Below, piece by piece: positions 1,265 through 25,777 of a stretch of DNA of 27,892 bases. The DNA is from Saccoglossus kowalevskii (taxonomy: Eukaryota > Hemichordata > Enteropneusta > Harrimaniidae), in contig NW_003120656.1 of the NCBI RefSeq assembly GCF_000003605.2, forward strand, positions 1 to 27,892, read 5' to 3'. Positions within the stretch are counted from its first letter, which is position 1. Every line of letters begins with the position of its first letter. Made by a program: the position numbers and the translations under genes. The notes beneath the pieces were generated by a model. It did not search any database. It was given only the letters and a program-made list of their open reading frames with translations, and was not told the DNA's origin.

Positions 1265-1739
1265 CACAAATGTCAATCTATAAGTTCTCTGTTCCCAGGC
1301 ATGTCTGAGATTGGGAATGCATGAACAGATAGAAACACACGTACATAAATGTCAATCCATAAGTTCTCTGTTCCCAGGCATGTCTGAGATTGGGGGATGC
1401 ATGAACGGATAGAAACACACGTACACAAATGTCAATCTATAAGTTCACTGTTCCCAGGCATGTCTGAGATTTGGGATGCATGAACGGATAGAATCACACG
1501 TACACAAATGTCAATCTATAAGTTTTCTGTTCCCAGGCATGTCTGAGATTTGGGATGCATGAACAGAGAGAAACACACGTAAACAAATGTCAATCTATAA
1601 GTTCACTGTTTCCAGGCATGTCTGAGATTGGGGATGCATGAACAGATAGAAACACACGTACACAAATGTCAATCTATAAGTTCACTGTTTCCAGGCATGT
1701 CTGAGATTGGGGATTCATGAACAGATAGAAACACACGTA
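1265..1739 (+). repeat. Six-monomer divergent satellite stretch leading into module A
   Basis: Mostly CTATAAG units with GATTTGGGATG, GTTTCCAGG, GAATCAC and AGAGAG variants. One unit has a fifth G in the G run near 1390. It foreshadows the module that starts at 1740. Nothing but satellite is visible. Confidence 0.8.
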
Positions 1740-3554: not shown

Positions 3555-3949
3555 CACAAATGTCAATCCATAAGTTCACTGTTCCCAGGCATGTCTGAGA
3601 TTGGGGTTGCATGAACATATAGAAACACACGTACACAAATGTCAATTCGTTAGTTCACTGTTCCCAGGCATGTCTGAGATTGGGAATGCATGTACGGATA
3701 GAAACACACGTACACAAATGTCAATTCGTAAGTTCACTGTTCCCAGGCATGTCTGAGATTGGGAATGCATGAACGGACAGAAACACACGTACACAAATGT
3801 CAATCCATAAGTTCTCTGTTCCCAGGCATGTCTGAGATTGGGGTTGCATGAACATATAGAAACACACGTACACAAATGTCAATCCGTAAGTTCACTGTTC
3901 CCAGGCATGTCTGAGATTGGGAATGCATGAACGGATAGAAACACACGTA
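3555..3949 (+). repeat. Recurrent GTTG/GGACAG five-monomer module
   Basis: Order: GGTTGCATGAACATATAG; two CGT(T/A)AG units with GGGAATG, the second with GGACAG; TTCTCTG with a second GTTG...ATATAG; then CCGTAAG with GGGAATG. The same order is seen at about 11,630-12,020 and about 26,250-26,640. This copy carries private ATTCG changes in two units. Confidence 0.8.
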
Positions 3950-5371
3950 CACAAATGTCAATCCATAAGTTCACTGTTCCCAGGCATGTCTGAGATTGGG
4001 GATGCATGAACGGATAGAAACACACGTACACAAATGTCAATCCATAAGTTCACTGTTCCCAGGCATGTCTGAGATTGGGGATGCATGAACGGATAGAAAC
4101 ACACGTACACAAATGTCAATCTATAAGTTCACTGTTGCCAGGCATGTCTGAGATTGGGGATGCATGAACGGATAGAAACACACGTACACAAATGTCAATC
4201 CATAAGTTCTCTGTTCCCAGGCATGTCTGAGATTGGGAATGCATGAACGGATAGAAACACACGTACACAAATGTCAATCTATAAGTTCACTGTTCCCAGG
4301 CATGTCTGAGATTGGAGATGCATGAACGGATAGAAACACACGTACACAAATGTCAATCCGTAAGTTCACTGTTCCCAGGCATGACTGAGATTGGGAATGC
4401 ATGAACGGATAGAAACACACGTACACAAATGTCAATCCATAAGTTCACTGTTCCCAGGCATGTCTGAGATTGGGGATGCATGAACGGATAGAAACACACG
4501 TACACAAATGTCAATCTAAAAGTTCACTGTTCCCAGGCATGTCTGAGATTGGGGATGCATGAACGGATAGAAACACACGTACACAAATGTCAATCCATAA
4601 GTTCACTGTTCCCAGGCATGTCTGAGATTGGGGATGCATGAACAGATAGAAACACACGTACACAAATGTCAATCCATAAGTTCACTGTTCCCAGGCATGT
4701 CTGAGATTGGGGATGCATGAACGGATAGAAACACACGTACACAAATGTCAATCTATAAGTTCACTGTTCCCAGGCATGTCTGAGATTGGGGATGCATGAA
4801 CGGATAGAAACACACGTACACAAATGTCAATCTATAAGTTCACTGTTCCCAGGCATGTCTGAGATTGGGGATGCATGAACGGATAGAAACACACGTACAC
4901 AAATGTCAATCCATAAGTTCACTGTTCCCAGGCATGTGTGAGATTGGGGATGCATGAACGGATAGAAACACACGTACACAAATGTCAATCTATAAGTTCA
5001 CTGTTCCCAGGCATGTCTGAGATTGGGGATGCATGAACGGATAGAAACACACGTACACAAATGTCAATCCGTAAGTTCACTGTTCCCAGGCATGTCTGAG
5101 ATTGGGAATGCATGAACGGATAGAAACACACGTACACAAATGTCAATCCATAAGTTCACTGTTCCCAGGCATGTCTGAGATTGGGGATGCATGAACGGAT
5201 AGAAACACACGTACACAAATGTCAATCTATAAGTTCACTGTTCCCAGGCATGTCTGAGATTGGGGATGCATGAACGGATAGAAACACACGTACACAAATG
5301 TCAATCTATAAGTTCACTGTTCCCAGGCATGTCTGAGATTGGGGATGCATGAACGGATAGAAACACAAGTA
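3950..5371 (+). repeat. Homogeneous satellite stretch
   Basis: Eighteen monomers of exactly 79 bp, close to consensus. They differ mainly at unit positions 15-16 (CCATAAG, CTATAAG or CCGTAAG) and 52. Singletons are GTTGCCAGG near 4135, GACTGAG near 4384, CTAAAAG near 4512, GTGTGAG near 4937 and CACAAGTAC near 5366. The near-absence of indels and private variants contrasts with module A and suggests recent homogenisation. Confidence 0.75.
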
Positions 5372-6554
5372 CACAAATGTCAATCCATAAGTTCACTGTT
5401 CCCAGGCATGTCTGAGATTGGGATGCATGAACAGAGAGAAACACACGTACACAAATGTCAATCTATAAGTTCACTGTTCCCAGGCATGTCTGAGATTGGG
5501 GATGTATGAACAGATAGAAACACACGTACACAAATGTCAATCCATAAGTTCACTGTTCCCAGGCATGTCTGAGATTGGGGATGCATGAACGGATGGAAAC
5601 ACACGTTCACAAATGTCAATCCATAAGTTCTCTGTTCCCAGGCATGTCTGAGATTGGGGATGCATGAACAGATAGAAAAACACGTACACAAATGTCAATC
5701 CATAAGTTCACTGTTCCCAGGCATGTCTGAGATTGGGAATGCATGAACGGATAGAAACACACGTACACAAATGTCAATCTATAAGTTCACTGATTCCAGG
5801 CATGTCTGAGATTGGGGATGCATGAACGGATAGAAACACACGTACACAAATGTCAATCCATAAGTTCTCTGTTCCCAGGCATGTCTGAGATTGGGGATTC
5901 ATGAACAGATAGAAACACACGTAAACAAATGTCAATCTATAAGTTTTCTGTTCCCAGGCATGTCTGAGATTTGGGATGCATGAACGGATAGAAACACACG
6001 TACACAAATGTCAATCCACAAGTTGTCTGTTGCCAGGCATGTCTGAGATTGGGGATGCATGAACGGATGGAAACACACGTTCACAAATGTCAATCCATAA
6101 GTTCTCTGTTCCCAGGCATGTCTGAGAGTGGGGATGCATGAACAGATAGAAACACACGTACACAAATGTCAATCCATAAGTTCTCTGTTCCCAGGCATGT
6201 CTGAGATTGGGAATGCTTGAACAGAGAGAAACACACGTACACAAATGTCAATCTATAAGTTCACTGATCCCAGGCTGGTCCGAGATTGGGGATGCATGAA
6301 CAGACAGAAACACACGTACACAAATGTCAATCTATAAGTTCACTGTTCCCAGGCATGTCTGAGATTGGGAATGCATGAACAGAGAGAAACACACGTACAC
6401 AAATGTCAATCCATAAGTTCTCTGTTCCCAGGCATGTCTGAGATTGGGATGCATGAACGGATAGAAACACACATACACAAATGTCAATCCATAAGTTCAC
6501 TGTTCCCAGGCATGTCTGAGATTGGGGATGCATGAACGGATAGAAACACACGTA
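5372..6554 (+). repeat. Mixed satellite block with module A fragment at 5924
   Basis: At 5924 the module A opening appears (GTAAAC, CTATAAG, TTTTCTG, GATTTGGG). CCACAAG at 6003 and GAGAGTGGGG at 6082 follow in the same order as copy 1. GGATGGAAACACACGTTCAC occurs twice, near 5591 and 6064. The unit at 6240 carries the odd GGCTGGTCCGAG. G-run deletions lie near 5421 and 6447. Confidence 0.8.
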
Positions 6555-7186
6555 CACAAATGTCAATCCGTTAATTCACAGTTCCAAGGCATGTCTGAGA
6601 TTGGGAATGCATGAACGGATAGAAACACACGTACACAAATGTCAATCCGTAAGTTCACAGTTCCCAGGCATGTCTGAGATTGGGAATGCATGAACATATA
6701 GAAACACACGTACACAAATGTCAATCCGTAAGTTCACTGTTCCCAGGCATATCTGAGATTGGGAATGCATGAACGGATAGAAACACACGTACACAAATGT
6801 CAATCCGTAAGTTCACTGTTCCCAAGCATGTCTAAGATTGGGAATGCATGAACGGATAGAAACACACGTACACAAATGTCAATCCGTAAGTTCACTGTTC
6901 CCAGGCATGTCTGAGATTGGGAATGCATTATCGGATAGAAACACACGTACACAAATGTCAATCCGTAAGTTCACTGTTCCCAAGCATGTCTGAGATTGGG
7001 GATGCATGAACGGATAGAAACACACGTACACAAATGTCAATCCGTAAGTTCACTGTTCCCAGGCATGTCTGAGATTGGGAATGCATGAACGGATAGAAAC
7101 ACACGTACACAAATGTCAATCCGTAAGTTCACTGTTCCCAGGCATGTCTGAGATTGTGGATGCATGAACGGATAGAAACACACGTA
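6555..7186 (+). repeat. Run of eight CpG-bearing (CCGT) monomers
   Basis: Eight successive monomers all keep the CG at unit position 15-16 (CCGTTAA once, CCGTAAG seven times). Most also have GGGAATG. Elsewhere this state is interleaved with CCATAAG and CTATAAG. CACAGTTCCAAGG at 6576 is shared only with the unit at 20,642. Confidence 0.75.
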
Positions 7187-8212
7187 CACAAATGTCAATC
7201 CACAAGTTCACTGATCCCAGGCATGTCTGAGATTGGGGATGCATGAACAGATAGAAACACACGTACACAAATGTCAATCCGTAAGTTCACTGTTCCCAGG
7301 CATGTCTGAGATTGGGGTTGCATGAACAGATAGAAACACACGTACACAAATGTCAATCCACAAGTTCACTGATCCCAGGCATGTCTGAGATTGGGGATGC
7401 ATGAACGGATAGAAACACACGTACACAAATGTCAATCCATAAGTTCACTGTTCCCAGGCATGTCTGAGATTGGGGATGCATGAACGGATAGAAACACACG
7501 TACACAAATGTCAATCCATAAGTTCACTGTTCCCAGGCATGTCTGAGATTGGGAATGCATGAACGGACAGAAACACACGTACACATATGCCAATCCATAA
7601 GTTCACTGTTCCCGGGCGTGTCTGAGATTGGGGATGCATGTACAGATAGAAACACACGTACACAAATGTCACTCCATAAGTTCACTGATCCCAGGCATGT
7701 CTGAGATTGGGGATGCATGAACAGATAGAAACACACGTGCACAAATGTCAATCCATAAGTTCACTGTTCCCAGGCATGTCTGAGATTGGGGTTGCATGAA
7801 CAGATAGAAACACACGTACACAAATGTCAATCCACAAGTTCACTGATCCCAGGCATGTCTGAGATTGGGGATGCATGAACGGATAGAAACACACGTACAC
7901 AAATGTCAATCCATAAGTTCACTGTTCCCAGGCATGTCTGAGATTGGGAATGCATGAACGGACAGAAACACACGTACACATATGTCAATCCATAAGTTCA
8001 CTGTTCCCAGGCATGTCTGAGATTGGGGATGTATGAACAGATAGAAACACACGTACACTAATGTCAATCCATAAGTTCACTGTTCCCAGGCATGTCTGAG
8101 ATTGGGGATGCATGAACGGATAGAAACACACGTACACAAATGTCAATCCATAAGTTCACTGTTCCCAGGCATGTCTGAGATTGGGATGCATGAACGGATA
8201 GAAACACACGTA
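7187..8212 (+). repeat. 474-bp (6-monomer) duplication with one monomer lost
   Basis: CCACAAGTTCACTGATCCC with GATGCATGAACGG occurs at 7358 and 7832, 474 bp apart. Copy 1 (7266-7739) reads GTTG...ACAG, CCACAAG, CCATAAG, GAATG with GGACAG, CATATG with CCCGGG, then GTCACTCC. Copy 2 (7740 on) follows the same order but lacks the plain CCATAAG unit, and has CCCAGG in place of CCCGGG. A further CCACAAG unit stands at 7187. Confidence 0.8.
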
Positions 8213-8843
8213 AACAAATGTCAATCTATAAGTTTTCTGTTCCCAGGCATGTCTGAGATTTGGGATGCATGAACGGATAGAATCACACGTACACAAATGT
8301 CAATCCACAAGTTCTCTGTTCTCAGGCATGTCTGAGAGTGGAGATACATGAACAGATAGAAACACACGTACACAAATGTCAATCCATAAGTTCTCTGTTC
8401 CCAGGCATGTCTGAGATTGGGGATGCATGAACAGATAGAAACACACGTACACAAATGTCAATCCATAAGTTCTCTGTTCCCAGGCATGTCTGAGATTGGG
8501 GATGTATGAACAGATTGAAACACACGTAAACAAATGTCAATCCATAAGTTCTCTGTTCGCAGGCATGTCTGAGATTGGGGATGCATGAACGGATAGAAAC
8601 ACACGTAAACAAATGTCAATCCATAAGTCCTCTGTTCCCAGGCATGTCTGAGATTGGGGATGCATGAACGGATGGAAACACACGTACACAAATGTCAATC
8701 CATAAGTTCTTTGTTTCCAGGCATGTCTGAGATTGGGAATGCATGAACAGATAGAAACACACGATACAAATGTCAATCCATAAGTTCTCTGTTCCCAGGC
8801 ATGTCTGAGATTGGGGATGCATGAATGGATAGAAACACACGTA
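8213..8843 (+). repeat. Module A, copy 2 (contracted)
   Basis: Follows the variant order of 1740-2528 but with two fewer monomers. The unit at 8292 combines CCACAAG, which belongs to unit 1819 of copy 1, with GAGAGTGG, which belongs to unit 1898: a hybrid. The unit at 8687 likewise stands for two units (2292 and 2371). One base is missing at CACACGATAC near 8763. Confidence 0.8.
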
Positions 8844-9630
8844 TACAAATGTCAATCCATAAGTTCACTAATCCCAGGCATGTTTGAGATTGGGGATGCA
8901 TGAACGGATAGAAACACACGTACACAAAAGTCAATCCATAAGTTCTCTGTTCCCAGGCATGTCTGAGATTAGGAATGCATGAACAGATAGAAACACACGT
9001 ACACAAATATCAATCCATAAGTTCACTGTTCCCAGGCATGTCTGAGATTGGGAATGCATGAACGGATAGAAACACACGTACACAAATATCAATCCATAAG
9101 TTCTCTGTTCCCAGGCATGGCTGAGATTGGGGATGCATGAACGGATAGAAAAATACGTACATAAATGTCAATCCATAAGTTCACTGTTCCCAAGCATGTC
9201 TGAGATTGGGGATTCATGAACAGATAGAAACACACGTATACAAATGTCAATCCATAAGTTCACTAATCCCAGGCATGTTTGAGATTGGGGATGCATGAAC
9301 GGATAGAAACACACGTACACAAAAGTCAATCCATAAGTTCTCTGTTCCCAGGCATGTCTGAGATTAGGAATGCATGAACAGATAGAAACACACGTACACA
9401 AATATCAATCCATAAGTTCACTGTTCCCAGGCATGTCTGAGATTGGGAATGCATGAACGGATAGAAACACACGTACACAAATATCAATCCATAAGTTCTC
9501 TGTTCCCAGGCATGGCTGAGATTGGGGATGCATGAACGGATAGAAAAATACGTACATAAATGTCAATCCATAAGTTCACTGTTCCCAAGCATGTCTGAGA
9601 TTGGGGATTCATGAACAGATAGAAACACAC
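8841..9630 (+). repeat. Exact 395-bp (5-monomer) tandem duplication
   Basis: Copy 1 is 8841-9235 and copy 2 is 9236-9630. I read both base by base and saw no difference. Rare markers occur in both: CACTAATCCC with GTTTGAG, AAAAGTC, GATTAGGAATG, AAATATC twice, GGCTGAG, GAAAAATACGTACATAAAT, CCAAGCATG and GGGATTCATG. The first part of the unit belongs to module A. Identity across so many private variants points to a very recent event, or to an assembly duplication. Confidence 0.95.
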
Positions 9631-10028
9631 GTACACAAATGTCAATCCATAAGTTCTCTGTTCCCAGGCATGTCTGTGATTGGGAATGCATGAACAGACA
9701 GAAACACACGTACACAAATGTCAATCTATAAGTTCACTGTTCCCAAGCATGTCTGAGATTGGGGATGTATGAGCAGATAGAAACACACGTACACAAATGT
9801 CAATCCATAAGTTCACTGTTCCCAGGCATGTCTGAGATTGGGGATGCATGAACGGATAGAAACACACGTACACAAATGTCAATCCATAAGTTCACTGTTC
9901 CCAGGCATGTCTGAGATTGGGATGCATGAACGGATAGAAACACACGTAAACAAATGTCAATCTATAAGTTTTCTGTTCCCAGGCATGTCTGAGATTGGGA
10001 ATGCATGAACGGATAAGAAACACACGTA
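9631..10028 (+). repeat. Satellite spacer between two duplications
   Basis: Five monomers of mixed type, including GAGCAGATAG near 9771, a G-run deletion near 9921, a GTAAAC/TTTTCTG unit at 9949 that resembles the module A opening but ends in GGGAATG, and an extra A in GGATAAGAAAC near 10,013. No other content seen. Confidence 0.8.
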
Positions 10029-10106
10029 CACAAATGTCAATCCATAAGTTCACTGTCCCGGGCATGTCTGAGATTGGGGATGCATGTACAGATAGAAACA
10101 CACGTA

Positions 10107-10196
10107 CACAAATGTCACTCCATATGTTCACTGTTCCCAGGCATGTCTGAGATTGGGGATGCATGAACGGATGAAACACATATAGAAACACACGTA
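10107..10196 (+). repeat. 90-bp hybrid monomer (11-bp longer)
   Basis: This unit is 90 bp long because its end reads GGATGAAACACATATAGAAAC in place of GGATAGAAAC or CATATAGAAAC. It looks like the 3' end of an ACGGATAG-type unit joined 11 bp out of register to a CATATAG-type unit, through the shared GAAACAC. It contains the GTCACTCCATATG variant. Confidence 0.9.
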
Positions 10197-10986
10197 CACA
10201 AATGTCAATCCGTAAGTTCACTGTTCCCAGGCATGTCTGAGATTGGGAATGCATGAACGGATAGAAACACACGTACACAAAAGTCAATCCATAAGTTCAC
10301 TGTTCCCAGGCATGTCTGAGATTGGGGTTGCATGAACATATAGAAACACACGTACACAAATGTCAATCCGTAAGTTCACTGTTCCCAGGCATGTCTGAGA
10401 TTGGGGTTGCATGAACATATAGAAACACACGTACTCAAATGTCAATCCGTAAGTTCACTGTTCCCAGGCATGTCTGAGATTGGGAATGCATGAACGGATA
10501 GAAACTCACGTACACAAATGTCTATCCGTAAGTTCACTGTTCCCAGGCATGTCTGAGATTGGGAATGCATGAACGGATAGAAACACACGTACACAAATGT
10601 CAATTCATAAGTTCACTTTTCCCAGGCATGTCTGAGATTGGGGATGTATGAACAGATAGAAACACACGTACACAAATGTCAATCCATATGTTCACTGTTC
10701 CCAGGCATGTCTGAGATTGGGGATGCATGAACGGATAGAAACACACGTACACAAATGTCAATCCATAAGTTCACTGTTCCCAGGCATGTCTGAGATTGGG
10801 GATGCATGAACGGATAGAAACACACGTACACAAATGTCAATCCATAAGTTCACTGTTCCCAGGCATGTCTGAGATTGGGAATGCATGAACGGACAGAAAC
10901 ACACGTACACATATGTCAATCCATAAGTTCACTGTTCCCGGGCGTGTCTGAGATTGGGGATGCATGTACAGATAGAAACACACGTA

Positions 10987-11076
10987 CACAAATGTCACTC
11001 CATATGTTCACTGTTCCCAGGCATGTCTGAGATTGGGGATGCATGAACGGATGAAACACATATAGAAACACACGTA
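10987..11076 (+). repeat. 90-bp hybrid monomer, second copy
   Basis: Same structure as the unit at 10,107, carried along by the 880-bp duplication. These are the only two units in the window longer than 80 bp. Confidence 0.9.
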
Positions 11077-11550
11077 CACAAATGTCAATCCGTAAGTTCA
11101 CTGTTCCCAGGCATGTCTGAGATTGGGAATGCATGAACGGATAGAAACACACGTACACAAATGTCAATCCATAAGTTCACTGTTCCCAGGCATGTCTGAG
11201 ATTGGGGTTGCATGAACATATAGAAACACACGTACACAAATGTCAATCCGTAAGTTCACTGTTCCCAGGCATGTCTGAGATTGGGGTTGCATGAACATAT
11301 AGAAACACACGTACTCAAATGTCAATCCGTAAGTTCACTGTTCCCAGGCATGTCTGAGATTGGGAATGCATGAACGGATAGAAACACACGTACACAAATG
11401 TCTATCCGTAAGTTCACTGTTCCCAGGCCTGTCTGAGATTGGGAATGCATGAACGGATAGAACCACACGTACACAAATGTCAATCCATAAGTTCACTTTT
11501 CCCAGGCATGTCTGAGATTGGGGATGTATGAACAGATAGAAACACACGTA

Positions 11551-12656
11551 CACAAATGTCAATCCATAAGTTCACTGTTCCCAGGCATGTCTGAGATTGG
11601 GGATGCATGAACAGATAGAAACACACGTACACAAATGTCAATCCATAAGTTCACTGTTCCCAGGCATGTCTGAGATTGGGGTTGCATGAACATATAGAAA
11701 CACACGTACACAAATGTCAATCCGTAAGTTCACTGTTCCCAGGCATGTCTGAGATTGGGAATGCATGAACGGATAGAAACACACGTACACAAATGTCAAT
11801 CCGTAAGTTCACTGTTCCCAGGCATGTCTGAGATTGGGAATGCATGAACGGACAGAAACACACGTACACAAATGTCAATCCATAAGTTCTCTGTTCCCAG
11901 GCATGTCTGAGATTGGGGTTGCATGAACATATAGAAACACACGTACACAAATGTCAATCCGTAAGTTCACTGTTCCCAGGCATGTCTGAGATTGGGAATG
12001 CATGAACGGATAGAAACACACGTACACAAATGTCAATCCATAAGTTCACTGTTCCCAGGCATGTCTGAGATTGGGGATGCATGAACGGATAGAAACACAC
12101 TTACACAAATGTCAATCTATAAGTTCACTGTTCCCAGGCATGTCTGAGATTGGGGATGCATAAACGGATAGAAACACACGTACACAAATGTCAATCCATA
12201 AGTTCTCTGTTCCCAGGCATGTCTGAGATTGGGAATGCATGAACGGATAGAAACACACGTACACAAATGTCAATCCATAAGTTCACTGTTCCCAGGCATG
12301 TCTGAGATTGGGGATGCGTAAATGGATAGAAACACACGTACACAAATGTCAATCCATAAGTTCACTGTTCCCAGGCATGTCTGAGATTGGGGATGCATGA
12401 ACGGATAGAAACACACGTACACAAATGTCAATCCATAAGTTCACTGTTCCCAGGCATGTCTGAGATTGGGGATGCATGAACAGATAGAAACACACGTACA
12501 CAAATGTCAATCCATAAGTTCACTGTTCCCAGGCATGTCTGAGATTGGGGTTGCATGAACATATAGAAACACACGTACACAAATGTCAATCCGTAAGTTC
12601 ACTGTTCCCAGGCATGTCTGAGATTGGGAATGCATGAACAGATAGAAACACACGTA
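11551..12656 (+). repeat. Satellite block with GTTG/GGACAG module and CACTTAC unit
   Basis: Contains the recurrent order also seen from 3555 and 26,250, followed by CACACTTAC (near 12,100), CTATAAG with GCATAAACGG, and TTCTCTG with GGGAATG. The same tail recurs at the right edge of the window. GCGTAAATGG near 12,317 is a private form. Confidence 0.8.
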
Positions 12657-14160
12657 CACAAATGTCAATCCGTAAAGTTCACTGTTCCCAGGCATGTCTG
12701 AGATTGGGAATGCATGAACGGACAGAAACACACGTACACATATGTCAATCCATAAGTTCACTGTTCCCGGGCGTGTCTGAGATTGGGGATGCATGTACAG
12801 ATAGAAACATACGTACACAAATGTCACTCCTTATGTTCACTATTCCCAGGCATGTCTGAGATTGGGGATGCATGAACGGATAGAAACACACGTACACAAA
12901 TGTCAATCCATAAGTTCACTGTTCCCAGGCATGTCTGAGATTGTGGATGCATGAACGGATAGAAACACACGTACACAAATGTCAATCCATAAGTTCACTG
13001 TTCCCAGGCATGTCTGAGATTGGGGATGCATGAACGGATAGAAACACACGTACACAAATGTCAATACATATGTTCACTGTTTCCAGGCGTGTCTGAGATT
13101 GGGGATGCATGAACGGATAGAAACACACGTACACAAATGTCAATCCATAAGTTCACTGTTCCCAGGCATGTCTGAGATTGGGGATGCATGACCAGATAGA
13201 AACACACGTACAAAAATGTCAATCCATAAGTTCACTGTTCCCAGGCATGTCTGAGATTGGGGTTGCATGAACATATAGAAACACACGTACACAAATGTCA
13301 ATCCGTAAGTTCACTGTTCCCAGGCATGTCTGAGATTGGAAATGCATGAATGGATAGAAACACACGTACACAAATGTCAATTTGTAAGTTCACTGTTCCC
13401 AGTCATGTCTGAGATTGGGAATGCATGAACGGACAGAAACACACGTACACAAATGTCAATATATAAGTTCACTGTTCCCGGGCGTGTCTGAGATTGGGGA
13501 TGCATGAACAGATAGAAACACACGTACACAAATGTCACTCCATATGTTCACTGTTCCCAGGCATGTCTGAGATTGGGGATGCATGAACGGATAGAATCAC
13601 ACGTACACAAATGTCAATCCATAAGTTCACTGTTCCCAGGCATGTCTGAGATAGGGGTTGCATGAACATATAGAAACACACGTACACAAATGTCAATCCG
13701 TAAGTTCTCTGTTCCCAGGCATGTCTGAGATTGGGAATGCATGAACGGATAGAAACACACGTACACAAATGTCAATCCGTAAGTTCACTGTTCCCAGGCA
13801 TGTCTGAGATTGGGAATGCATGAATGGATAGAAACACACGTACACAAATGTCAATCCGTAAGTTCACTGTTCCCAGGCATGTCTGAGATTGGGAATGCAT
13901 GAACGGACAGAAACACACGTACACATATGTCAATCCATAAGTTCACTGTTCCCGGGCGTGTCTGAGATTGGGGGATGCATGTACAGATAGAAACACACGT
14001 ACACAAATGTCACTCCTTATGTTCACTATTCCCAGGCATGTCTGAGATTGGGGATGCATGAACGGATAGAAACACACGTACACAAATGTCAATCCATAAG
14101 TTCACTGTTCCCAGGCATGTCTGAGGATTGGGGATGCATGAACGGATAGAAACACACGTA
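12657..14160 (+). repeat. CCCGGG cassette repeated at 1185 bp (15 monomers)
   Basis: A three-monomer cassette occurs at 12,657 and 13,843. Its first unit has GGACAG. The second has ACACATATG, CCCGGGCGTG and GCATGTACAG. The third has GTCACTCCTTATG and CACTATTCCC. The ACACATATG units lie exactly 1185 bp apart (12,737 and 13,922). A variant cassette lies between them at 13,369-13,605, with ATATATAAG, CCCGGG and CACTCCATATG. Single-base insertions lie near 12,673, 13,971 and 14,123. Confidence 0.85.
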
Positions 14161-15503
14161 CACAAATGTCAATCCATAAGTTCACTGTTCCCAGGCATGT
14201 CTGAGATTGGGGATTCATGAACGGATAGAAACACACGTACACAAATGTCAATCTATAAGTTCACTGATCCCAGGCATGTCTGAGATTGGGGATGAATGAA
14301 GAGATAGAAACACACGTACACAAATGTCAATCCATAAGTTCACTGTTCCCAGGCATGTCTGAGTTTGGGGATTCATGAACGGATAGAAACACACGTACAC
14401 AAATGTCAATCTATAAGTTCACTGTTCCCAGGCATGTCTGAGATTGGGGATGAATGAAGAGATAGAAACACTCGTACACAAATGTCAATCTATAAGTTCA
14501 CTGTTCCCAGGCATGTCTGAGATTGGGGATGAATGAAGAGATAGAAACACTCGTACACAAATGTCAATCCATAAGTTCACTATTCCCAGGCATGTCTGAG
14601 ATTGGGGATGCATTAACGGATAGAAACACACGTACACAAATGTCAATCTGTAAGTTCACTGTTCCCAGGCATGTCTGAGATTGGGGATGCATTAACGGAT
14701 AGAAACACACGTACACAAATGTCAATCCATAAGTTCACTGTTCCCAGGCATGTCTGAGATTGGGGTTGCATGAACATATAGAAACACACGTACACAAATG
14801 TCAATCCATAAGTTCTCTGTTCCCGGGCATGTCTGAGATTGGGGATGCATGAACGGATAGAAACACACGTACACAAATGTCAATCCATGAGTTCTATGTT
14901 CCCAGGCATGTCTGAGATTGGGGATGCATGAACGGATAGAAACACACGTACACAAATGTCAATCCGTAAGTTCACTGTTCCCAGGCATGTCTGAGATTGG
15001 GGACGCATGAACGGATAGAAACACACGTACACAAATGTCAATCCGTAAGTTCACTGTTCCCAGGCATGTCTGAGATTGGGGTTGCATGAACATATAGAAA
15101 CACACGTACACAAATGTCAATCCATAAGTTCTCTGTTCCCAGGCATGTCTGAGATTGGGGATGCATGAACGGATAGAAACACACGTACACAAATTTCAAT
15201 CCAAAAGTTTTATGTTCCCAGGCATGTCTGAGATTGGGGATGCATGAACGGATAGAAACACACGTACACAAATGTCAATCCGTAAGTTCACTGTTCCCAG
15301 GCATGTCTGAGATTGGGGACGCATGAACGGATAGAAACACACGTACACAAATGTCAATCCGTAAGTTCACTGTTCCCAGGCATGTCTGAGATTGGGGTTG
15401 CATGAAAATATAGAAACACACGTACACAAATGTAAATCCGTAAGTTCACTGTTCCTAGGCATGTCTGAGATTGGGGATGCATGAACGGATAGAAACACAC
15501 GTA
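14161..15503 (+). repeat. Rearranged third copy of the 14-monomer unit
   Basis: Follows the marker order of 21,037-23,249 from its second monomer: GATTCATG; CTATAAG with GATGAATGAAGAG; GAGTTTGGGG; CACTCG; GCATTAACGG; CTGTAAG; GTTG...ATATAG; TTCTCTG; TTCTATG; GGACGCATG; GTTGCATGAAAATATAG; GTAAATCC with TTCCTAGG. It holds two extra stretches: the CACTCG monomer is doubled (14,398 and 14,477), and monomers 8-11 are repeated (14,714-15,029 and 15,030-15,345). Private changes include TTCCCGGG near 14,820 and CCAAAAGTTTTATG near 15,201. Confidence 0.9.
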
Positions 15504-16373
15504 CACAAATGTCAATCCATAAGTTCACTGTTCCCAGGCATGTCTGAGATTGGAGATGCATGAACAGATAGAAACACACGTACACAAATGTCAATCCATA
15601 AGTTCACTGTTCCCAGGCATGTCTGAGATTGGGGATGCATGAACGGATAGAAACACACTTACACAAATGTCAATCTATTAGTTCACTGTTCCCAGGCATG
15701 TCTGAGATTGGGGATGCATAAACGGATAGAAACACACGTACACAAATGTCAATCCATAAGTTCTCTGTTCCCAGGCATGTCTGAGTTTGGGGATGCATGA
15801 ACGGATAGAAACACACGTACACAAATGTCAATCCATAAGTTCACTGTTCCCAGGCATGTCTGAGATTGGGGATGTATGAACAAATAGAAACACACGTACA
15901 CAAATGTCAATCCATAAGTTCTCTGTTCCCAGGCATGTCTGAGTTTGGGGATGCATGAACGGATAGAAACACACGTACACAAATGTCAATCCATAAGTTC
16001 ACTGTTCCCAGGCATGTCTGAGATTGGGGATGCATGAACAGATAGAAACACACGTACACAAATGTCAATCCATAAGTTCACTGTTCCCAGGCATGTCTGA
16101 GATTGGGGGTTGCATGAACATATAGAAACACACGTACACAAATGTCAATCCGTAAGTTCACTGTTCCCAGGCATGTCTGAGATTGGGAATGCATGAACGG
16201 ATAGAAACACACGTACACAAATGTTAATCCGTAAGTTCACTGTTCCAGGCATGTCTGAGATTGGGAATGCATGAACGGACAGAAACGCACGTACACAAAT
16301 GTCAATCCATAAGTTCACTGTTCCCAGGCATGTCTGAGATTGGGGTTGCATGAACATTATAGAAACACACGTA
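15504..16373 (+). repeat. Segmental copy matched at 25,778 (11 monomers)
   Basis: Marker order: GGAGATG; CACTTAC; CTATTAG with GCATAAACGG; GAGTTTGGGG; GATGTATGAACAAATAG; an extra GAGTTTGGGG unit; ACAG; GTTG; CCGTAAG; GTTAATCC with GGACAG; GTTG. The same order without the extra unit stands at 25,778-26,567, about 10.3 kb downstream. Indels here are an extra G near 16,107, a lost C (GTTCCAGG) near 16,245 and CATTATAG near 16,355. Confidence 0.88.
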
Positions 16374-17084
16374 CACAAATGTCAATCCATAAGTTCACTG
16401 TTCCCAGGCATGTCTGAGATTGGGAATGCATGAACAGATAGAAACACACGTACACAAATGTCAATCCATAAGTTCACTGTTCCCAGGCATGTCTGAGATT
16501 GGGGATGCATGAACAGATAGAAACACACGTACACAAATGTCAATCCATAAGTTCACTGTTCCCAGGCATGTCTGAGATTGGGAATGCATGGACGGATAGA
16601 AACACACGTACACAAATGTCAATCCATAAGTTCACTGTTCCCAGGCATGTCTGAGATTGGGGATGCATGAACGGATAGAAACACACGTACACAAATGTCA
16701 ATCCATAAGTTCACTGTTCCCAGGCATGTCTGAGATTGGGGATGCATGAACGGATAGAAACACACGTACACAAATGTCAAACTATAAGTTCACTGTTCCC
16801 AGGCATGTCTGAGATTGGGGATGCTTGAACGGATAGAAACACACGTACACAAATGTCAATCCATAAGTTCTCTGTTCCCAGGCATGTCTGAGATTGGGAA
16901 TGCATGAACGGATAGAAACACACGTACACAAATGTCAATCCATAAGTTCACTGTTCCCAGGCATGTCTGAGATTGGGGTTGCATGAACATATAGAAACAC
17001 ACGTACACAAATGTCAATCCATAAGTTCACTGTTCCCAGGCATGTCTGAGATTGGGAATGCATGAACGGATAGAAACACACGTA
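16374..17084 (+). repeat. Near-consensus satellite stretch
   Basis: Nine monomers of 79 bp, mostly CCATAAG. Private variants are GCATGGACGG near 16,588, CAAACTATAAG near 16,780, GCTTGAACGG near 16,824 and a GTTG...ATATAG unit near 16,979. No other content seen. Confidence 0.8.
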
Positions 17085-17319
17085 CACAAATGTCAATCCA
17101 TAAGTTCACTGTTCTCAGGCATGTCTGAGATGGGGATGCATGAACAGATAGAAACACACGTACACAAATGTCAATCCATAAGTTCACTGTTCCCAGACAT
17201 GTCTGAGATTGGGAATGCATGAACAGATAGTAACACACGTACACAAATGTCAATCCATAAGTTCACTTTTCCCAGGCATGTCTGAGATGGGGATGCATGA
17301 ACAGATAGAAACGCACGTA
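17085..17319 (+). repeat. Two-monomer local repeat with GAGATGGGG deletion
   Basis: GAGATGGGG, which lacks one T, occurs near 17,129 and 17,286, one dimer apart. The middle unit has CCCAGACATGTCTG, which makes the usually imperfect 12-bp palindrome at unit 32-43 perfect, and ATAGTAAC. A dimer duplication or conversion is the simplest reading. Confidence 0.75.
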
Positions 17320-18271
17320 CACAAATGTCAATCCATAAGTTCACTGTTCCCAGGCATGTCTGAGATTGGGGTTGCATGAACATATAGAAACACACGTACA
17401 CAAATGTCAATCCATAAGTTCACTGTTCCCAGGCATGTCTGAGTTTGGGGATGCATGAACAGATAGAAACACACGTACACAAATGTCAATCCATATGTTC
17501 ACTGTTCCCAGGCATGTCTGAGATTGGGGATGCAAGAACAGATAGAAACACACGTACACAAATGTCAATCCATAAGTTCACTGTTCCCAGGCATGTCTGA
17601 GATTGGGAATGCATGAACGGACAGAAACACACGTACACAAAATGTCAATCCATAAGTTCTCTGTTCCCAGGCATATCTGAGATTGGGGGTTGCATGAACA
17701 TATAGAAACACACGTACACAAATGTCAATCCGTAAGTTTCACTGTTCCCAGGCATGTCTGAGATTGGGGATGCATGAACAGATAGAAACACACGTACACA
17801 AATGTCAATCTATAAGTTCACTGTTCCCAGGCATGTCTGAGATTGGGGATGCATGAACAGATAGAAACACACGTACACAAATGTCAATCCATAAGTTCAC
17901 TGTTTCCCAGGCATGACTGAGATTGGGAATGCATGAACGGATAGAAACACACGTACACAAATGTCAATCCATAAGTTCACTGTTCCCAGGCATGTCTGAG
18001 ATTGGGGATGCATGAACAGATAGAAACACACGTACACAAATGTCAATCCATAAGTTCACTGTTCCCAGGCATGTCTGAGATTGGGGATGCATGAACGGAT
18101 AGAAACACACGTACACAAATGTCAATCCATAAGTTCACTGTTCCCAGGCATGTCTGAGATTGGGGATGCATGAACATATAGAAACACACGTACACAAATG
18201 TCAATCCATAAGTTCACTGTTCCCAGGCATGACTGAGATTGGGGATGAATGAAGAGATAGAAACACACGTA
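17320..18271 (+). repeat. Satellite stretch with clustered +1 indels
   Basis: Twelve monomers, mostly consensus. Four single-base gains fall within about 270 bp, all in homopolymers: ACAAAATG (17,640), GGGGG (17,684), GTTTCAC (17,738) and GTTTCCC (17,903). Other variants are GCAAGAACAG near 17,533 and GATGAATGAAGAG near 18,245. No gene. Confidence 0.8.
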
Positions 18272-19061
18272 CACAAATGTCAATCTATAAGTTCACTGTT
18301 CCCAGGCATGTCTGAGATTGGGAATGCATAAATGGATAGAAACACACGTACACAAATGTCAATCTATAAGTTCACTGTTCCCAGGCATGACTGAGATTGG
18401 GAATGCATGAACAGATAGAAACACACGTACACAAATGTCAATCCATAAGTTCACTGTTCCCAGGCATGTCTGAGATTGGGGATGCATGAACGGATAGAAA
18501 CACACGTACACAAATGTCAATCCGTAAGTTCACTGTTCCCAGGCATGTCTGAGATTGGGAATGCATGAACGGATAGAAACACACGTACACAAATGTCAAT
18601 CCATAAGTTCACTGTTCCCAGGCATGTCTGAGATTGGGGATGCATGAACGGATAGAAACACACGTACACAAATGTCAATCTATAAGTTCACTGTTCCCAG
18701 GCATGACTGAGATTGGGAATGCATGAACGGATAGAAACACACGTACACAAATGTCAATCTATAAGTTCACTGTTCCCAGGCATGTCTGAGATTGGGAATG
18801 CATAAATGGATAGAAACACACGTACACAAATGTCAATCTATAAGTTCACTGTTCCCAGGCATGACTGAGATTGGGAATGCATGAACAGATAGAAACACAC
18901 GTACACAAATGTCAATCCATAAGTTCACTGTTCCCAGGCATGTCTGAGATTGGGGATGCATGAACGGATAGAAACACACGTACACAAATGTCAATCCGTA
19001 AGTTCACTGTTCCCAGGCATGACTGAGATTGGGAATGCATGAACGGATAGAAACACACGTA
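18272..19061 (+). repeat. 474-bp (6-monomer) tandem duplication
   Basis: Copy 1 is 18,272-18,745; copy 2 starts at 18,746. GGGAATGCATAAATGG, followed one unit later by GACTGAG with ACAG, occurs at 18,323 and 18,797, 474 bp apart. The fourth unit of copy 2 has gained GACTGAG and starts the next higher-order series. Confidence 0.85.
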
Positions 19062-20404
19062 CACAAATGTCAATCCATAAGTTCTCTGTTCCCAGGCATG
19101 TCTGAGATTGGGGATGCATGAACGGATAGAAACACACGTACACAAATGTCAATCCATAAGTTCTCTGTTCCCAGGCATGTCTGAGATTGGGGATGCATGA
19201 ACGGATAGAAACACACGTACACAAATGTCAATCCATAAGTTCACTGTTCCCAGGCATGTCTGAGATTGGGAATACATGAACATATAGAAACACACATACA
19301 CAAATGTCAATCCGTAAGTTCACTGTTCCCAGGCATGACTGAGATTGGGAATGCATGAACGGATAGAAACACACGTACACAAATGTCAATCCATAAGTTC
19401 ACTGTTCCCAGGCATGACTGAGATTGGGAATGCATGAACGGATAGAAACACACGTACACAAATGTCAATCCATAAGTTCTCTGTTCCCAGGCATGTCTGA
19501 GATTGGGGATGCATGAACGGATAGAAACACACGTACACAAATGTCAATCCATAAGTTCTCTGTTCCCAGGCATGTCTGAGATTGGGGATGCATGAACGGA
19601 TAGAAACACACGTACACAAATGTCAATCCATAAGTTCACTGTTCCCAGGCATGTCTGAGATTGGGAATACATGAACATATAGAAACACACATACACAAAT
19701 GTCAATCCGTAAGTTCACTGTTCCCAGGCATGTCTGAGATTGGGGATGCATGAACGGATAGAAACACACGTACACAAATGTCAATCCGTAAGTTCACTGT
19801 TCCCAGGCATGTCTGAGATTGGGGATGCATGAACGGATAGAAACACACGTACACAAATGTGAATCCATAAGTTCACTGTTCCCAGGCATGACTGAGATTG
19901 GGGATGCATGAACGGATAGAAACACACGTACACAAATGTCAATCTATAAGTTCACTGTTCCCAGGCATGTCTGAGATTGGGAATACATGAACATATAGAA
20001 ACACACATACACAAATGTCAATCCGTAAGTTCACTGTTCCCAGGCATGTCTGAGATTGGGGATGCATGAACGGATAGAAACACACGTACACAAATGTCAA
20101 TCCGTAAGTTCACTGTTCCCAGGCATGTCTGAGATTGGGGATGCATGAACGGATAGAAACACACGTACACAAATGTCAATCCGTAAGTTCACTGTTCCCA
20201 GGCATGTCTGAGATTGGGGATGCATGAACGGATAGAAACACACGTACACAAATGTCAATCCGTAAGTTCACTGTTCCCAGGCATGACTGAGATTGGGGAT
20301 GCATGAACGGATAGAAACACACGTACACAAATGTCAATCTATAAGTTCACTGTTCCCAGGCATGTCTGAGATTGGGAATACATGAACATATAGAAACACA
20401 CATA
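18983..20404 (+). repeat. Alternating 4-mer and 5-mer higher-order repeat
   Basis: Four units end in the same marked monomer, GGGAATACATGAACATATAG with CACATAC (AATACATG at 19,271, 19,666, 19,982 and 20,377; spacing 395, 316, 395). Boundaries: 18,983-19,298 (4 monomers), 19,299-19,693 (5), 19,694-20,009 (4), 20,010-20,404 (5). GACTGAG marks at least one monomer in every unit. The first pair carries TTCTCTG doublets; the second pair has CCGTAAG runs and CTATAAG in the last monomer. Confidence 0.92.
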
Positions 20405-21036
20405 CACAAATGTCAATCCGTAAGTTCACTGTTCCCAGGCATGTCTGAGATTGGGGATGCATGAACGGATAGAAACACACGTACACAAATGTCAATCCGT
20501 AAGTTCACTGTTCCCAGGCATGTCTGAGATTGGGGATGCATGAACGGATAGAAACACACGTACACAAATGTCAATCCATAAGTTCACTGTTCCCAGGCAT
20601 GTCTGAGATTGGGGATGCATGAACGGATAGAAACACACGTACACAAATGTCAATCTATAAGTTCACAGTTCCAAGGCATGTCTGAGATTGGGGATGCATG
20701 AACGGATAGAAACACACGTACACAAATGTCAATCCGTAAGTTCACTGTTCCCAGGCATGTCTGAGATTGGGAATGCATGAACGGATAGAAACACACGTAC
20801 ACAAATGTCAATCCATAAGTTCACTGTTCCCAGGCATGTCTGAGATTGGGGATGCATAAATGGATAGAAACACACGTACAGAAATGTCAATCCATAAGTT
20901 CACTGTTCCCAGGCATGTCTGAGATTGGGGATGCATGAACGGATAGAAACACACGTACACAAATGTCAATCCATATGTTCACTGTTTCCAGGCGTGTCTG
21001 ATATTGGGGATGCATGAACGGATAGAAACACGCGTA
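20405..21036 (+). repeat. Satellite spacer before the 14-monomer repeat
   Basis: Eight monomers near consensus. Private variants are CACAGTTCCAAGG (20,665), GCATAAATGG, GTACAGAAATG near 20,880, CCATATG with GTTTCCAGGCGTGTCTGATATT near 20,975, and CACGCGTAC near 21,030. No other content seen. Confidence 0.8.
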
Positions 21037-22142
21037 CACAAATGTCAATCCATAAGTTCACTGTTCCCAGGCATGTCTGAGATTGGGGATGCATGAACGG
21101 ATAGAAACTCACGTACACAAATGTCAATCCATAAGTTCACTGTTCCCAGGCATGTCTGAGATTGGGGATTCATGAACGGATAGAAACACACGTACACAAA
21201 TGTCAATCTATAAGTTCACTGATCCCAGGCATGTCTGAGATTGGGGATGAATGAAGAGATAGAATCACACGTACACAAATGTCAATCCATAAGTTCACTG
21301 TTCCCAGGCATGTCTGAGTTTGGGGATTCATGAACGGATAGAAACACACGTACACAAATGTCAATCTATAAGTTCACTGTTCCCAGGCATGTCTGAGATT
21401 GGGGATGAATGAAGAGATAGAAACACTCGTACACAAATGTCAATCCATAAGTTCACTGTTCCCAGGCATGTCTGAGATTGGGGATGCATTAACGGATAGA
21501 AACACACGTACACAAATGTCAATCTGTAAGTTCACTGTTCCCAGGCATGTCTGAGATTAGGGATGCATTAACGGATAGAAACACACGTACACAAATGTCA
21601 ATCCATAAGTTCACTGTTCCCAGGCATGTCTGAGATTGGGGTTGCATGAACATATAGAAACACACGTACACAAATGTCAATCCATAAGTTCTCTGTTCCC
21701 AGGCATGTCTGAGATTGGGGATGCATGAACGGATAGAAACACACGTACACAAATGTCAATCCATAAGTTCTATGTTCCCAGGCATGTCTGAGATTGGGGA
21801 TGCATGAACGGATAGAAACACACGTACACAAATGTCAATCCGTAAGTTCACTGTTCCCAGGCATGTCTGAGATTGGGGACGCATGAACGGATAGAAACAC
21901 ACGTACACAAATGTCAATCCGTAAGTTCACTGTTCCCAGGCATGTCTGAGATTGGGGTTGCATGAAAATATAGAAACACACGTACACAAATGTAAATCCA
22001 CAAATTCTCTGTTCCTAGGCATGTCTGAGATTGGGGATGCATGAACGGATAGAAACACACGTACACAAATGTCAATCCATAAGTTCTATGTTTCCAGGCA
22101 TGTCTGAGATTGGGGATTCATGAACGGATAGAAACACACGTA
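21037..22142 (+). repeat. 14-monomer higher-order unit, copy 1 (1106 bp)
   Basis: Fourteen distinguishable monomers in order: GAAACTCAC; GATTCATG; GATCCC with GATGAATGAAGAG and AATCAC; GAGTTTGGGG; CACTCG; GCATTAACGG; CTGTAAG; GTTG...ATATAG; TTCTCTG; TTCTATG; GGACGCATG; GTTGCATGAAAATATAG; GTAAATCCACAAATTC with TTCCTAGG; and TTCTATGTTTCC. The block is followed directly by a second copy. By reading I count about five differences, roughly 99.5% identity. Confidence 0.95.
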
Positions 22143-23249
22143 CACAAATGTCAATCCATAAGTTCACTGTTCCCAGGCATGTCTGAGATTGGGGATGCAT
22201 GAACGGATAGAAACTCACGTACACAAATGTCAATCCATAAGTTCACTGTTCCCAGGCATGTCTGAGATTGGGGTTTCATGAACGGATAGAAACACACGTA
22301 CACAAATGTCAATCTATAAGTTCACTGATCCCAGGCATGTCTGAGATTGGGGATGAATGAAGAGATAGAATCACACGTACACAAATGTCAATCCATAAGT
22401 TCACTGTTCCCAGGCATGTCTGAGTTTGGGGATTCATGAACGGATAGAAACACACGTACACAAATGTCAATCTATAAGTTCACTGTTCCCAGGCATGTCT
22501 GAGATTGGGGATGAATGAAGAGATAGAAACACTCGTACACAAATGTCAATCCATAAGTTCACTGTTCCCAGGCATGTCTGAGATTGGGGATGCATTAACG
22601 GATAGAAACACACGTACACAAATGTCAATCTGTAAGTTCACTGTTCCCAGGCATGTCTGAGATTGGGGATGCATTAACGGATAGAAACACACGTACACAA
22701 ATGTCAATCCATAAGTTCACTGTTCCCAGGCATGTCTGAGATTGGGGTTGCATGAACATATAGAAACACACGTACACAAATGTCAATCCATAAGTTCTCT
22801 GTTCCCAGGCATGTCTGAGATTGGGGATGCATGAACGGATAGAAACACACGTACACAAATGTCAATCCATAAGTTCTATGTTCCCAGGCATGTCTGAGAT
22901 TGGGGATGCATGAACGGATAGAAACACACGTACACAAATGTCAATCCGTAAGTTCACTGTTCCCAGGCATGTCTGAGATTGGGGACGCATGAACGGATAG
23001 AAACACACGTACACAAATGTCAATCCGTAAGTTCACTGTTCCCAGGCATGTCTGAGATTGGGGTTGCATGAAAATATAGAAACACACGTACACAAATGTA
23101 AATCCACAAATTCTCTGTTCCTAGGCATGTCTGAGATTGGGGATGCATGAACGGATAGAAACACACGTACAAAAAATGTCAATCCATAAGTTCTATGTTT
23201 CCAGGCATGTCTGAGATTGGGGATGCATGAACGGATAGAAACACACGTA
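22143..23249 (+). repeat. 14-monomer higher-order unit, copy 2 (1107 bp)
   Basis: Same fourteen monomers in the same order as copy 1. Differences seen: GGTTTCATG for GGATTCATG (monomer 2), GATTGGGG for GATTAGGG (monomer 7), and in monomer 14 GATGCATG for GATTCATG plus a changed and an added A in GTACAAAAAATG (near 23,172). Monomer-to-monomer divergence inside the unit is far larger than copy-to-copy divergence, the hallmark of a true higher-order repeat. Confidence 0.95.
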
Positions 23250-23644
23250 CACAAATGTCAATCCGTAAGTTCACAGTTCCCAGGCATGTCTGAGATTGGG
23301 GATGCATGAACGGATAGAAACACACGTACACAAATGTCAATCCGTAAGTTCACAGTTCCCAGGCATGTCTGAGATTGGGGATGCATGAACGGATAGAAAC
23401 ACACGTACACAAATGTCAATCCATAAGTTCTATGTTTCCAGGCATGTCTGAGATTGGGGATGCATGAACGGATAGAAACACACGTACACAAATGTCAATC
23501 CGTAAGTTCACAGTTCCCAGGCATGTCTGAGATTGGGGATGCATGAACGGATAGAAACACACGTACACAAATGTCAATCCGTAAGTTCACTGTTCCCAGG
23601 CATGTCTGAGATTGGGAATGCATGAACGGATAGAAACACACGTA
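23170..23644 (+). repeat. 237-bp (3-monomer) duplication at the end of the 14-mer unit
   Basis: TTCTATGTTTCC recurs at 23,191 and 23,428, 237 bp apart, each followed by CCGTAAGTTCACAGTTCCC units. The first monomer is the last monomer of the 14-mer unit, so the duplication overlaps its end. The last monomer of the second copy has reverted to TTCACTG with GGGAATG. Confidence 0.85.
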
Positions 23645-24190
23645 CACAAATGTCAATCCATAAGTTCTCTGTTCCCAGGCATGTCTGAGATTGGGGATGC
23701 ATGAACGGATAGAAACACACGTACATAAATATCAATCCATAAGTTCACTGTTCCCAGGCATGTCTAAGATTGGGGATGCATGAACGGAGAGAAACACACA
23801 TACACAAATGTCAATCCATAAGTTCACTGTTCCGAGGCATGTCTGAGATTGGGAATGCATGAACGGATAGAAACACACGTACACAAATGTCAATCCATAA
23901 GTTCTCTGTTCCCAGGCATGGCTGAGATTGGGAATGCATGAACGGATAGAAACACACGTACATAAATGTCAATCCATAAGTTCACTGTTCCCAGGCATGT
24001 CTAAGATTGGGGATGCATGAACGGATAGAAACACACGTACACAAATGTCAATCCATAAGTTCTCTGTTCCCAGGCATGTCTGAGATTGGGGATGCATAAA
24101 TGGATAGAAACACACGTACACAAATGTCAATCCATAAGTTCTCTGGTCCCAGGCATGTCAGAGATTGGGAATGCATGAACGGATAGAAAC
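23645..24190 (+). repeat. Second copy of the left-edge satellite block
   Basis: Reproduces the order seen at 1-580: a TTCTCTG unit; CATAAATATC with TCTAAG; TTCACTG with GGGAATG; TTCTCTG with GGCTGAG; CATAAATG with TCTAAG; and a GCATAAATGG unit. Private changes are GGAGAG, GTTCCGAGG, CTGGTCCC and GTCAGAG. Copies about 23.6 kb apart suggest that the array also has a very long period. Confidence 0.8.
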
Positions 24191-25304
24191 ACATGTACAC
24201 AAATGTCAATCCATAAGTTCACTGATCCCAGGCATGGCTGAGATTGAGGATGCATGAACGGATAGAAACACACGTACACAAATGTCAATCCATAAGTTCA
24301 CTGTTCCCAGGCATGTCTGAGATTGGGGATGCATAAATGGATAGAAACACACGTACACAAATGTCAATCCATAAGTTCACTGTTCCCAGGCATGTCTGAG
24401 ATTGGGAATGCATGAACGGACAGAAACACACGTACACATATGTCAATCGATAAGTTCACTGTTCCCGGGCGTGTCTGAGATTGGGGATGCATGTACAGAT
24501 AGAAACACACGTACACAAATGTCACTCCATATGTTCACTGTTCCCAGGCATGTCTGAGATTGGGGATGCATGAACGGATAGGAACACACGTACACAAATG
24601 TCAATCCATAAGTTCACTGTTCCCAGGCATGTCTGAGATTGGGGTTGCATGAACATATAGAAACACACGTACACAAATGTCAATCCGTAAGTTCACTGTT
24701 CCCAGGCATGTCTGAGATTGGGAATGCATGAACGGATAGAAACACACGTACACAAATGTCAATCCGTAAGTTCACTGTTCCCAGGCATGTCTGAGATTGG
24801 GAATGCATGAACGGATAGAAACACACGTACACAAATGTCAATCCATAAGTTCACTTTTCCCAGGCATGTCTGAGATTGGGGATGTATGAACAGATAGAAA
24901 CACACGTACACAAATGTCAATCCATAAGTTCACTGTTCCCAGGCATGTCTGAGATTGGGGATGCATGAACAGATAGAAACACACGTACACAAATGTCAAT
25001 CCATAAGTTCACTGTTCCCAGGCATGTCTGAGATTGGGGATGCATGAACAGATAGAAACACACGTACACAAATGTCAATCCATAAGTTCACTGTTCCCAG
25101 GCATGTCTGAGATTGGGGATGCATGAACAGATAGAAACACACGTACACAAATGTCACTCCATATGTTCACTGTTCCCAGGCATGTCTGAGATTGGGGATG
25201 CATGAACGGATAGGAACACACGTACACAAATGTCAATCCATAATTTCACTGATCCCAGGCATGTCTGAGATTGGGGATGCATGAACAGATAGAAACACAC
25301 GTAC
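24191..25304 (+). repeat. Satellite block with CCCGGG cassette, third location
   Basis: The GGACAG / ACACATATG + CCCGGGCGTG + GTACAG / GTCACTCCATATG cassette lies at about 24,356-24,590. It is followed by GTTG...ATATAG, CCGTAAG units, and CACTTTTCCC with GATGTATG, as in the 880-bp unit but shorter and without the 90-bp hybrid monomer (GGATAGGAAC stands there). Private changes are TCGATAAG near 24,448 and CATAATTTCAC near 25,239. Confidence 0.82.
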
Positions 25305-25777
25305 ACAAATGCCAATCCGTAAGTTCACTGTTCCCAGGCATGTCTGAGATTGGGAATGCATGAACGGATAGAAACACACGTACACAAATGTCAATCCATA
25401 AGTTCTCTCTTCCCAGGCATGTCTGAGATTGGGGTTGCATGAACATATAGAAACACACGTACACAAATGTCAATCCGTAAGTTCACTGTTCCCAGGCATG
25501 TCTGAGATTGGGAATGCATGAACGGACAGAATCACACGTTCACAAATGTCAATCCGTAAGTTCACTGTTCCCAGGCATGTCTGAGATTGGGAATGCATGA
25601 ACGGACAGAAACACACGTACACAAATGTCAATCCATAAGTTCTCTCTTCCCAGGCATGTCTGAGATTGGGGTTGCATGAACATATAGAAACACGCGTACA
25701 CAAATGTCAATCCGTAAGTTCACTGTTCCCAGGCATGTCTGAGATTGGGAATGCATGAACGGATAGAAACACACGTA
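25305..25777 (+). repeat. 237-bp (3-monomer) tandem duplication
   Basis: TTCTCTCTTCCC with GGTTGCATGAACATATAG occurs at 25,403 and 25,640, 237 bp apart, flanked each time by CCGTAAG with GGGAATG. Differences are GCCAATCC, AATCACACGTTCAC (near 25,531) and CACGCGTAC (near 25,690). Confidence 0.85.

What the first reader, a model, noticed from the sequence alone, without database searches (positions are those of the whole stretch)
14714..15345. Hybrid monomer shows how four monomers were gained by unequal exchange
In the third copy of the 14-mer unit, monomers 8-11 appear twice. The unit at 15,030 begins like monomer 12 (CCGTAAG) and ends like monomer 8 (GTTGCATGAACATATAG, where monomer 12 has GAAAATATAG). 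Monomers 8 and 12 are the two GTTG...ATATAG types, so pairing 12 with 8 four units out of register explains the 316-bp gain. The breakpoint falls between unit positions 16 and 62.
Basis: partly seen in the sequence, partly recalled or inferred. Interest (0 to 1): 0.75.

Follow-up and report, generated by a model that had tools for sequence, protein, structure and literature searches.

The report
Hybrid satellite repeat from out-of-register exchange
In a long array of 79-base DNA repeats, one larger repeat has four extra units, and the seam is a unit that starts like one parent and ends like another: a clean but ordinary example of how satellite DNA changes length.

Summary
The window is one 79-bp satellite array of about 353 monomers. 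A 14-monomer higher-order repeat (HOR) occurs twice in tandem (#266-293) and once, incompletely, at #179-195. In that third copy m8-m11 are followed by the unit at 15030-15108, then m9-m11 again and a normal m12. The 15030 unit matches m12 at position 16 and m8 at position 62. A scan of 317 junctions for a 316-bp duplication has one minimum, at positions 16-61 of that unit (15045-15090). Support is thin: one base on each side, and the same 79 bp occurs at 10355 and 11235. The neighbours carry the argument. Out-of-register homologous exchange is the best explanation; crossover, slippage and break repair are not separable, and gain here versus loss elsewhere is inferred. Two additions: m7-m10 and m11-m14 share variants four apart, hinting at an older 4-monomer step (post hoc p 0.0025-0.03), and the repeated m9-m11 trios carry more private changes than their surroundings. 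This kind of event is textbook.

The parts
1..27892 (.). 79-bp satellite array filling the window, about 353 monomers, 93% matches by TRF
21037..22142 (+). Intact 14-monomer HOR, first tandem copy (m1-m14, #266-279)
22143..23249 (+). 14-monomer HOR, second tandem copy (#280-293; the last monomer differs at its start)
14161..15503 (+). Third, incomplete HOR copy (#179-195: m2-m13, with an extra m5 at #183 and four extra monomers)
14714..15029 (+). First m8-m9-m10-m11 block (#186-189)
15030..15108 (+). Hybrid monomer #190: m12-like at position 16 (base 15045), m8-like at position 62 (base 15091)
15046..15090 (.). 45-bp tract identical in m8 and m12 in which the junction most likely lies
15109..15345 (+). 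Second m9-m10-m11 block (#191-193)
15346..15424 (+). Unchanged m12 (#194) that follows the extra block

Best explanation
A 14-monomer higher-order repeat of a 79-bp satellite gained 316 bp when m12 of one strand or chromatid paired with m8 of another, four monomers out of register, and the molecules were joined inside the 45-bp stretch where m8 and m12 are identical. The product reads m8 m9 m10 m11 (m12-left/m8-right) m9 m10 m11 m12. Shown: the order of the monomers, the mixed state of the junction unit, the kept 79-bp phase. Inferred: homologous out-of-register exchange as the cause, gain in this copy rather than loss in the other two, and that the change has no function of its own but is a trace of satellite turnover.
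For: The junction scan against each of the two intact copies has one minimum, at #190 positions 16-61, with mismatches rising on both sides (11 against copy 1, 10 against copy 2). The neighbours alone predict an m12-left/m8-right unit, since m11 precedes and m9 follows. 62A is seen in 3 of 353 monomers, all m12 (one more, #206, has an inserted A there), and 54C in 4 of 353, all m11. The joint block score exceeds 5000 of 5000 shuffles. The left half of #190 matches all three m12 copies and no m8 copy, the right half all three m8 copies and no m12 copy. Other tandem block duplications lie in the same array: one monomer (#182/#183, identical), five monomers (#112-116/#117-121, 0 mismatches in a 411-bp run) and fourteen monomers (#266-279/#280-293).
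Against: One base on each side defines the hybrid; junctions elsewhere in 15009-15117 cost only one more mismatch. The same 79 bp occurs at #131 and #142 in other surroundings, so it can arise otherwise. Position 16 varies often (16G in 80 of 353 monomers) and 16G makes a CpG. The two m9-m11 trios differ at 5 of 237 positions, whereas seven other monomers of this HOR copy differ from both intact copies at 2 of 553, more than a duplication younger than the split of the copies would predict. Without the intact copies as guide the block match is not outstanding (29 of 300 shuffles at any lag 1-15).
Confidence: 0.8

Rival explanations
1. The four monomers were gained by duplication with the junction just outside positions 16-61 of #190, and the 'hybrid' state comes from one later base change (at 16 in an m8 copy, or at 62 in an m12 copy).
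For: Only one extra change is needed. Site 16 differs in 2 of 71 hand-chosen paralogous pairs against a mean of 0.57 per site; one of the two is #195.
Against: Needs an extra change to exactly the other parent's base; weight 0.4-3.5% under the rates tried. Site 62 differs in 0 of the 71 pairs and was given a floor of 1.
Confidence: 0.08
2. The longer form is older: an 18-monomer repeat existed first and the two intact copies descend from a version that lost four monomers.
For: By reasoning, not a call: recombination between #190 (left) and #194 (right) would give back a normal m12. The two trios are unexpectedly diverged (5 of 237).
Against: All 5 differing sites are private to one trio and none groups the intact copies with either. 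Needs one event more. It still needs an earlier gain of the same kind, so it overlaps with the best explanation and the confidences are not exclusive.
Confidence: 0.12
3. Gene conversion placed a patch of m8 or of another GTTG...ATATAG monomer into the unit, independently of the duplication.
For: #195 looks like m13 with a patch at positions 11-31 replaced by a 16G type. 28 monomers of the array carry 53T 63A 64T, 6 of them with 16G, and #131 and #142 equal #190.
Against: Does not account for the four extra monomers, and the duplication alone already predicts the hybrid.
Confidence: 0.06
4. Assembly artefact: 316 bp were doubled in the assembly.
For: Tandem arrays are error-prone; no reads and no assembly could be examined.
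Against: The two m9-m11 trios differ at 5 positions, each private to one trio, which a segment doubled in assembly would not show.
Confidence: 0.04

Closest known systems
Hybrid monomers of human alpha-satellite HORs (cen5/D5Z2, cen8, cenX)
   Same: A monomer made of the start of one HOR monomer and the end of another, monomer length usually conserved, seen in structural variants of HORs (passages of PMC8336445, PMC10053651, PMC9549924).
   Different: 79-bp instead of about 171-bp units; another satellite; the parents differ at only two bases, so the hybrid is far less securely marked.
Alpha-satellite repeat-unit variants of Warburton, Waye and Willard 1993
   Same: By its title, recombination events located within alpha-satellite repeat-unit variants (title seen in a reference list; content recalled; paper not held).
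   Different: One event here, so nothing can be said on preferred places.
Unequal crossover model of Smith 1976
   Same: Out-of-register exchange changes copy number by whole units and builds longer periods (citation seen; content recalled).
   Different: A general model; this is one instance.

Membership tests
Satellite DNA with higher-order repeats | Long head-to-tail array of one unit | tested here: met
   79-bp period over 1-27888, 352.7 copies
Satellite DNA with higher-order repeats | Multi-monomer unit repeated with higher identity than its monomers | tested here: met
   14-monomer copies #266-279/#280-293: 3 mismatches in a 1085-bp run; monomers inside the unit differ by 1-11 bases
Hybrid monomer (start of one HOR monomer joined to end of another) | Diagnostic bases of two parents that split at one point | tested here: met
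   Met with one diagnostic base on each side only
Hybrid monomer (start of one HOR monomer joined to end of another) | Closer to the two joined parents than to any single monomer | tested here: inconclusive
   #190 is 0 from the m12/m8 join but also 0 from #131 and #142
Unequal crossover product | Gain of whole units with phase kept | tested here: met
   316 bp = 4 x 79; #184-195 are all 79 bp
Unequal crossover product | Reciprocal product on the other chromatid (same four units lost, m8-left/m12-right) | not testable with these tools
   The window holds none: its 3 monomers with 62A all have 16G. The reciprocal product would lie on another molecule, so this says little
Alpha satellite | About 171-bp unit | tested here: not met
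   The unit is 79 bp

The most novel reading that the evidence does not exclude
The gain reused an older register: m7-m10 and m11-m14 of the 14-monomer unit are themselves descendants of a 4-monomer duplication (each of the four pairs shares variants), so the unit carries its own 4-step slip register and later exchanges tend to jump by the same step, here adding a third block [m11, m12/m8, m9, m10].
Probability: 0.35. Interest if true: 0.3.

Novelty: new member of a known kind. Interest (0 to 1): 0.15.

Why it matters
A bracketed exchange shows how larger repeat units in satellite arrays gain monomers while keeping phase. It is a useful worked example, in a satellite that gave no match in the searches made, but it changes no accepted view. 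If the 4-step register held in more copies, it would show that the history of a higher-order repeat steers the size of its later changes.

Tried and rejected
Array elsewhere: one exact 58-base pattern in genome contigs, one exact 37-base pattern in viral contigs, and blastn in 'distant' mode of 14714-15345 in plasmids and phages gave no match. The patterns are consensus stretches searched exactly, so diverged relatives would be missed, and the tools say that records of the window's own genome may be left out. Rfam at gathering scores and ARAGORN gave 0 matches. A full-text search for three monomer strings found 0 papers. The organism stays unknown; a eukaryote is an inference from the form of the array and from these missing matches.

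A survey of tandem runs was made to look for preferred junction places: few runs are rich enough in variants to bracket a junction, so nothing is claimed. The monomer-level self-alignment had a gap cost so low that it chained unrelated blocks; only its ungapped blocks were used. The lag-4 test was devised after the shared variants had been seen, so its p values are optimistic. In one search the 71 pairs were chosen by hand from the listings, and include monomers of the third HOR copy. Scripts left out the last monomer, which the window end cuts (352 of 353 used). Papers: search listings were seen, passages only; no paper was read whole. The confidences of the rivals overlap and do not sum to one.

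Full report
What is there. The window is a single head-to-tail array of a 79-bp unit (TRF: positions 1-27888, 352.7 copies, 93% matches). I cut it into 353 monomers by wrap-around alignment to the consensus; 327 of 353 are 79 bp and the last is cut by the window end. No tRNA and no Rfam match at gathering score was found. There was no match in the prokaryote, viral, plasmid and phage searches made, nor a paper in the held library printing any of three monomer strings. The assembly could not be searched: the genome search did not complete.

The higher-order repeat. Monomers #266-279 and #280-293 form two tandem copies of a 14-monomer unit, with 3 mismatches in a 1085-bp run. A third copy lies at #179-195 (14161-15503). 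It follows m2 to m13, with m5 doubled (#182 and #183 identical) and four extra monomers. After #195 it leaves the unit: #196-200 equal #326-330, 0 differences in five monomers.

The observation. In the third copy #186-189 are m8-m11, #190 is the unit at 15030, #191-193 are m9-m11 again and #194 is m12. Against the consensus m8 has 53T 63A 64T, m12 has 16G 53T 62A 63A 64T and #190 has 16G 53T 63A 64T. The finding's description and its 16-62 bracket are right; its comparison coordinates are 7 bases off (21590-21984 is correct). A joint score for the arrangement, measured against m8-m12 of the first intact copy, is 50.7; 0 of 5000 shuffles of monomer order reach it (highest -6.0). The match between the two blocks taken alone is weaker: 4 places at lag 4 in the real array reach its score (itself included), 3 of 300 shuffles at lag 4, and 29 of 300 over lags 1-15. 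The intact copies make the case.

Where the junction lies. I modelled a 316-bp duplication of m6-m13 of each intact copy at each of 317 junctions (14871-15187) and compared it with the observed 948 bp. The minimum is at positions 16-61 of #190 (15045-15090), with 11 mismatches against copy 1 and 10 against copy 2. Junctions at 15009-15044 or 15091-15117 cost one more, and the cost climbs further out. With a uniform prior over these 109 places the inner interval keeps 96.5-99.6% of the weight under three assumed rates. 62A is the better marker: 3 of 353 monomers, all m12. 16G is common, 80 of 353.

Weak points. #190 is identical to #131 and #142, which stand in other surroundings.

An older register. 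At a step of four, m7/m11 share 16G, m8/m12 share 53T 63A 64T, m9/m13 share 24T and m10/m14 share 24T 25A; of the other six pairs at this step only m3/m7 share a variant. The run of four is matched in 0.25% of 20000 permutations of the 14 monomers at lag 4 and 3.0% at any lag 2-7; for 14 monomers drawn from elsewhere in the array it is 1.9%. The statistic was chosen after looking. With the unit closed to a circle, step four also has the fewest differences of steps 1-7 (66; range 66-84). This suggests that m7-m14 arose by an older 4-monomer duplication and that the new gain jumped by the same step; it is not proven.

Age and direction. The two m9-m11 trios differ at 5 of 237 positions, each change private to one trio (2 in the first, 3 in the second); both intact copies have the other base each time. 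Outside the duplication, seven monomers of this copy (#179-182, #184-186) differ from both intact copies at 2 of 553 positions. Five changes in 474 bp are more than expected if the duplication is no older than the split of the copies (Poisson P 0.002 or 0.03, taking 1 or 2 changes outside). Three of the five sit within 16 bp of #192, and no other of the 352 monomers compared has its positions 5-24. So the gain is not visibly recent, and an 18-monomer ancestor with loss in the other copies is not excluded.

Mechanism and standing. The best explanation is an out-of-register homologous exchange between m12 and m8. Mitotic or meiotic unequal crossover, replication slippage, break-induced replication and single-strand annealing could leave the same seam (general knowledge, no call). 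Hybrid monomers in higher-order repeats are described for human alpha satellite in passages I saw of PMC8336445, PMC10053651 and PMC9549924. Passages of PMC2853522 describe unequal crossovers with conversion in alpha-satellite arrays. A passage of PMC3694981 speaks of junctions of about 20 bp and cites Warburton, Waye and Willard 1993, which is not held. The finding is a correct, well described instance of a known process.

Noticed in passing
15425-15503 (#195): m13 with 10A and 32T kept, but 17C, 20A and 24T absent and 16G present: looks like a short conversion patch (positions 11-31) from a 16G-type monomer such as the neighbouring m12; 59 other monomers carry that stretch, so no donor can be named.
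   Followed up: partly
15188-15266 (#192): Three private changes (8T, 17A, 23T) within 16 bp; no other of the 352 monomers compared has positions 5-24 of this unit.
   Followed up: partly
14398-14555 (#182-183): m5 is exactly doubled in the third HOR copy, a second gain within the same unit.
   Followed up: partly
8828-9633 (#111-121): Five-monomer tandem duplication with 0 mismatches over a 411-bp run, one of the youngest-looking block duplications of the window.
   Followed up: partly
10107-10196 and 10987-11076 (#128, #139): Two 90-bp monomers with the same 11 extra bases, eleven monomers apart, within a block that repeats at lag 11.
   Followed up: no
whole window: AGGCATGTCT, which fits the p53 half-site consensus RRRCWWGYYY (consensus recalled), occurs 304 times on the + strand, in most monomers; probably coincidence, as the spacing is 79 bp.
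   Followed up: no
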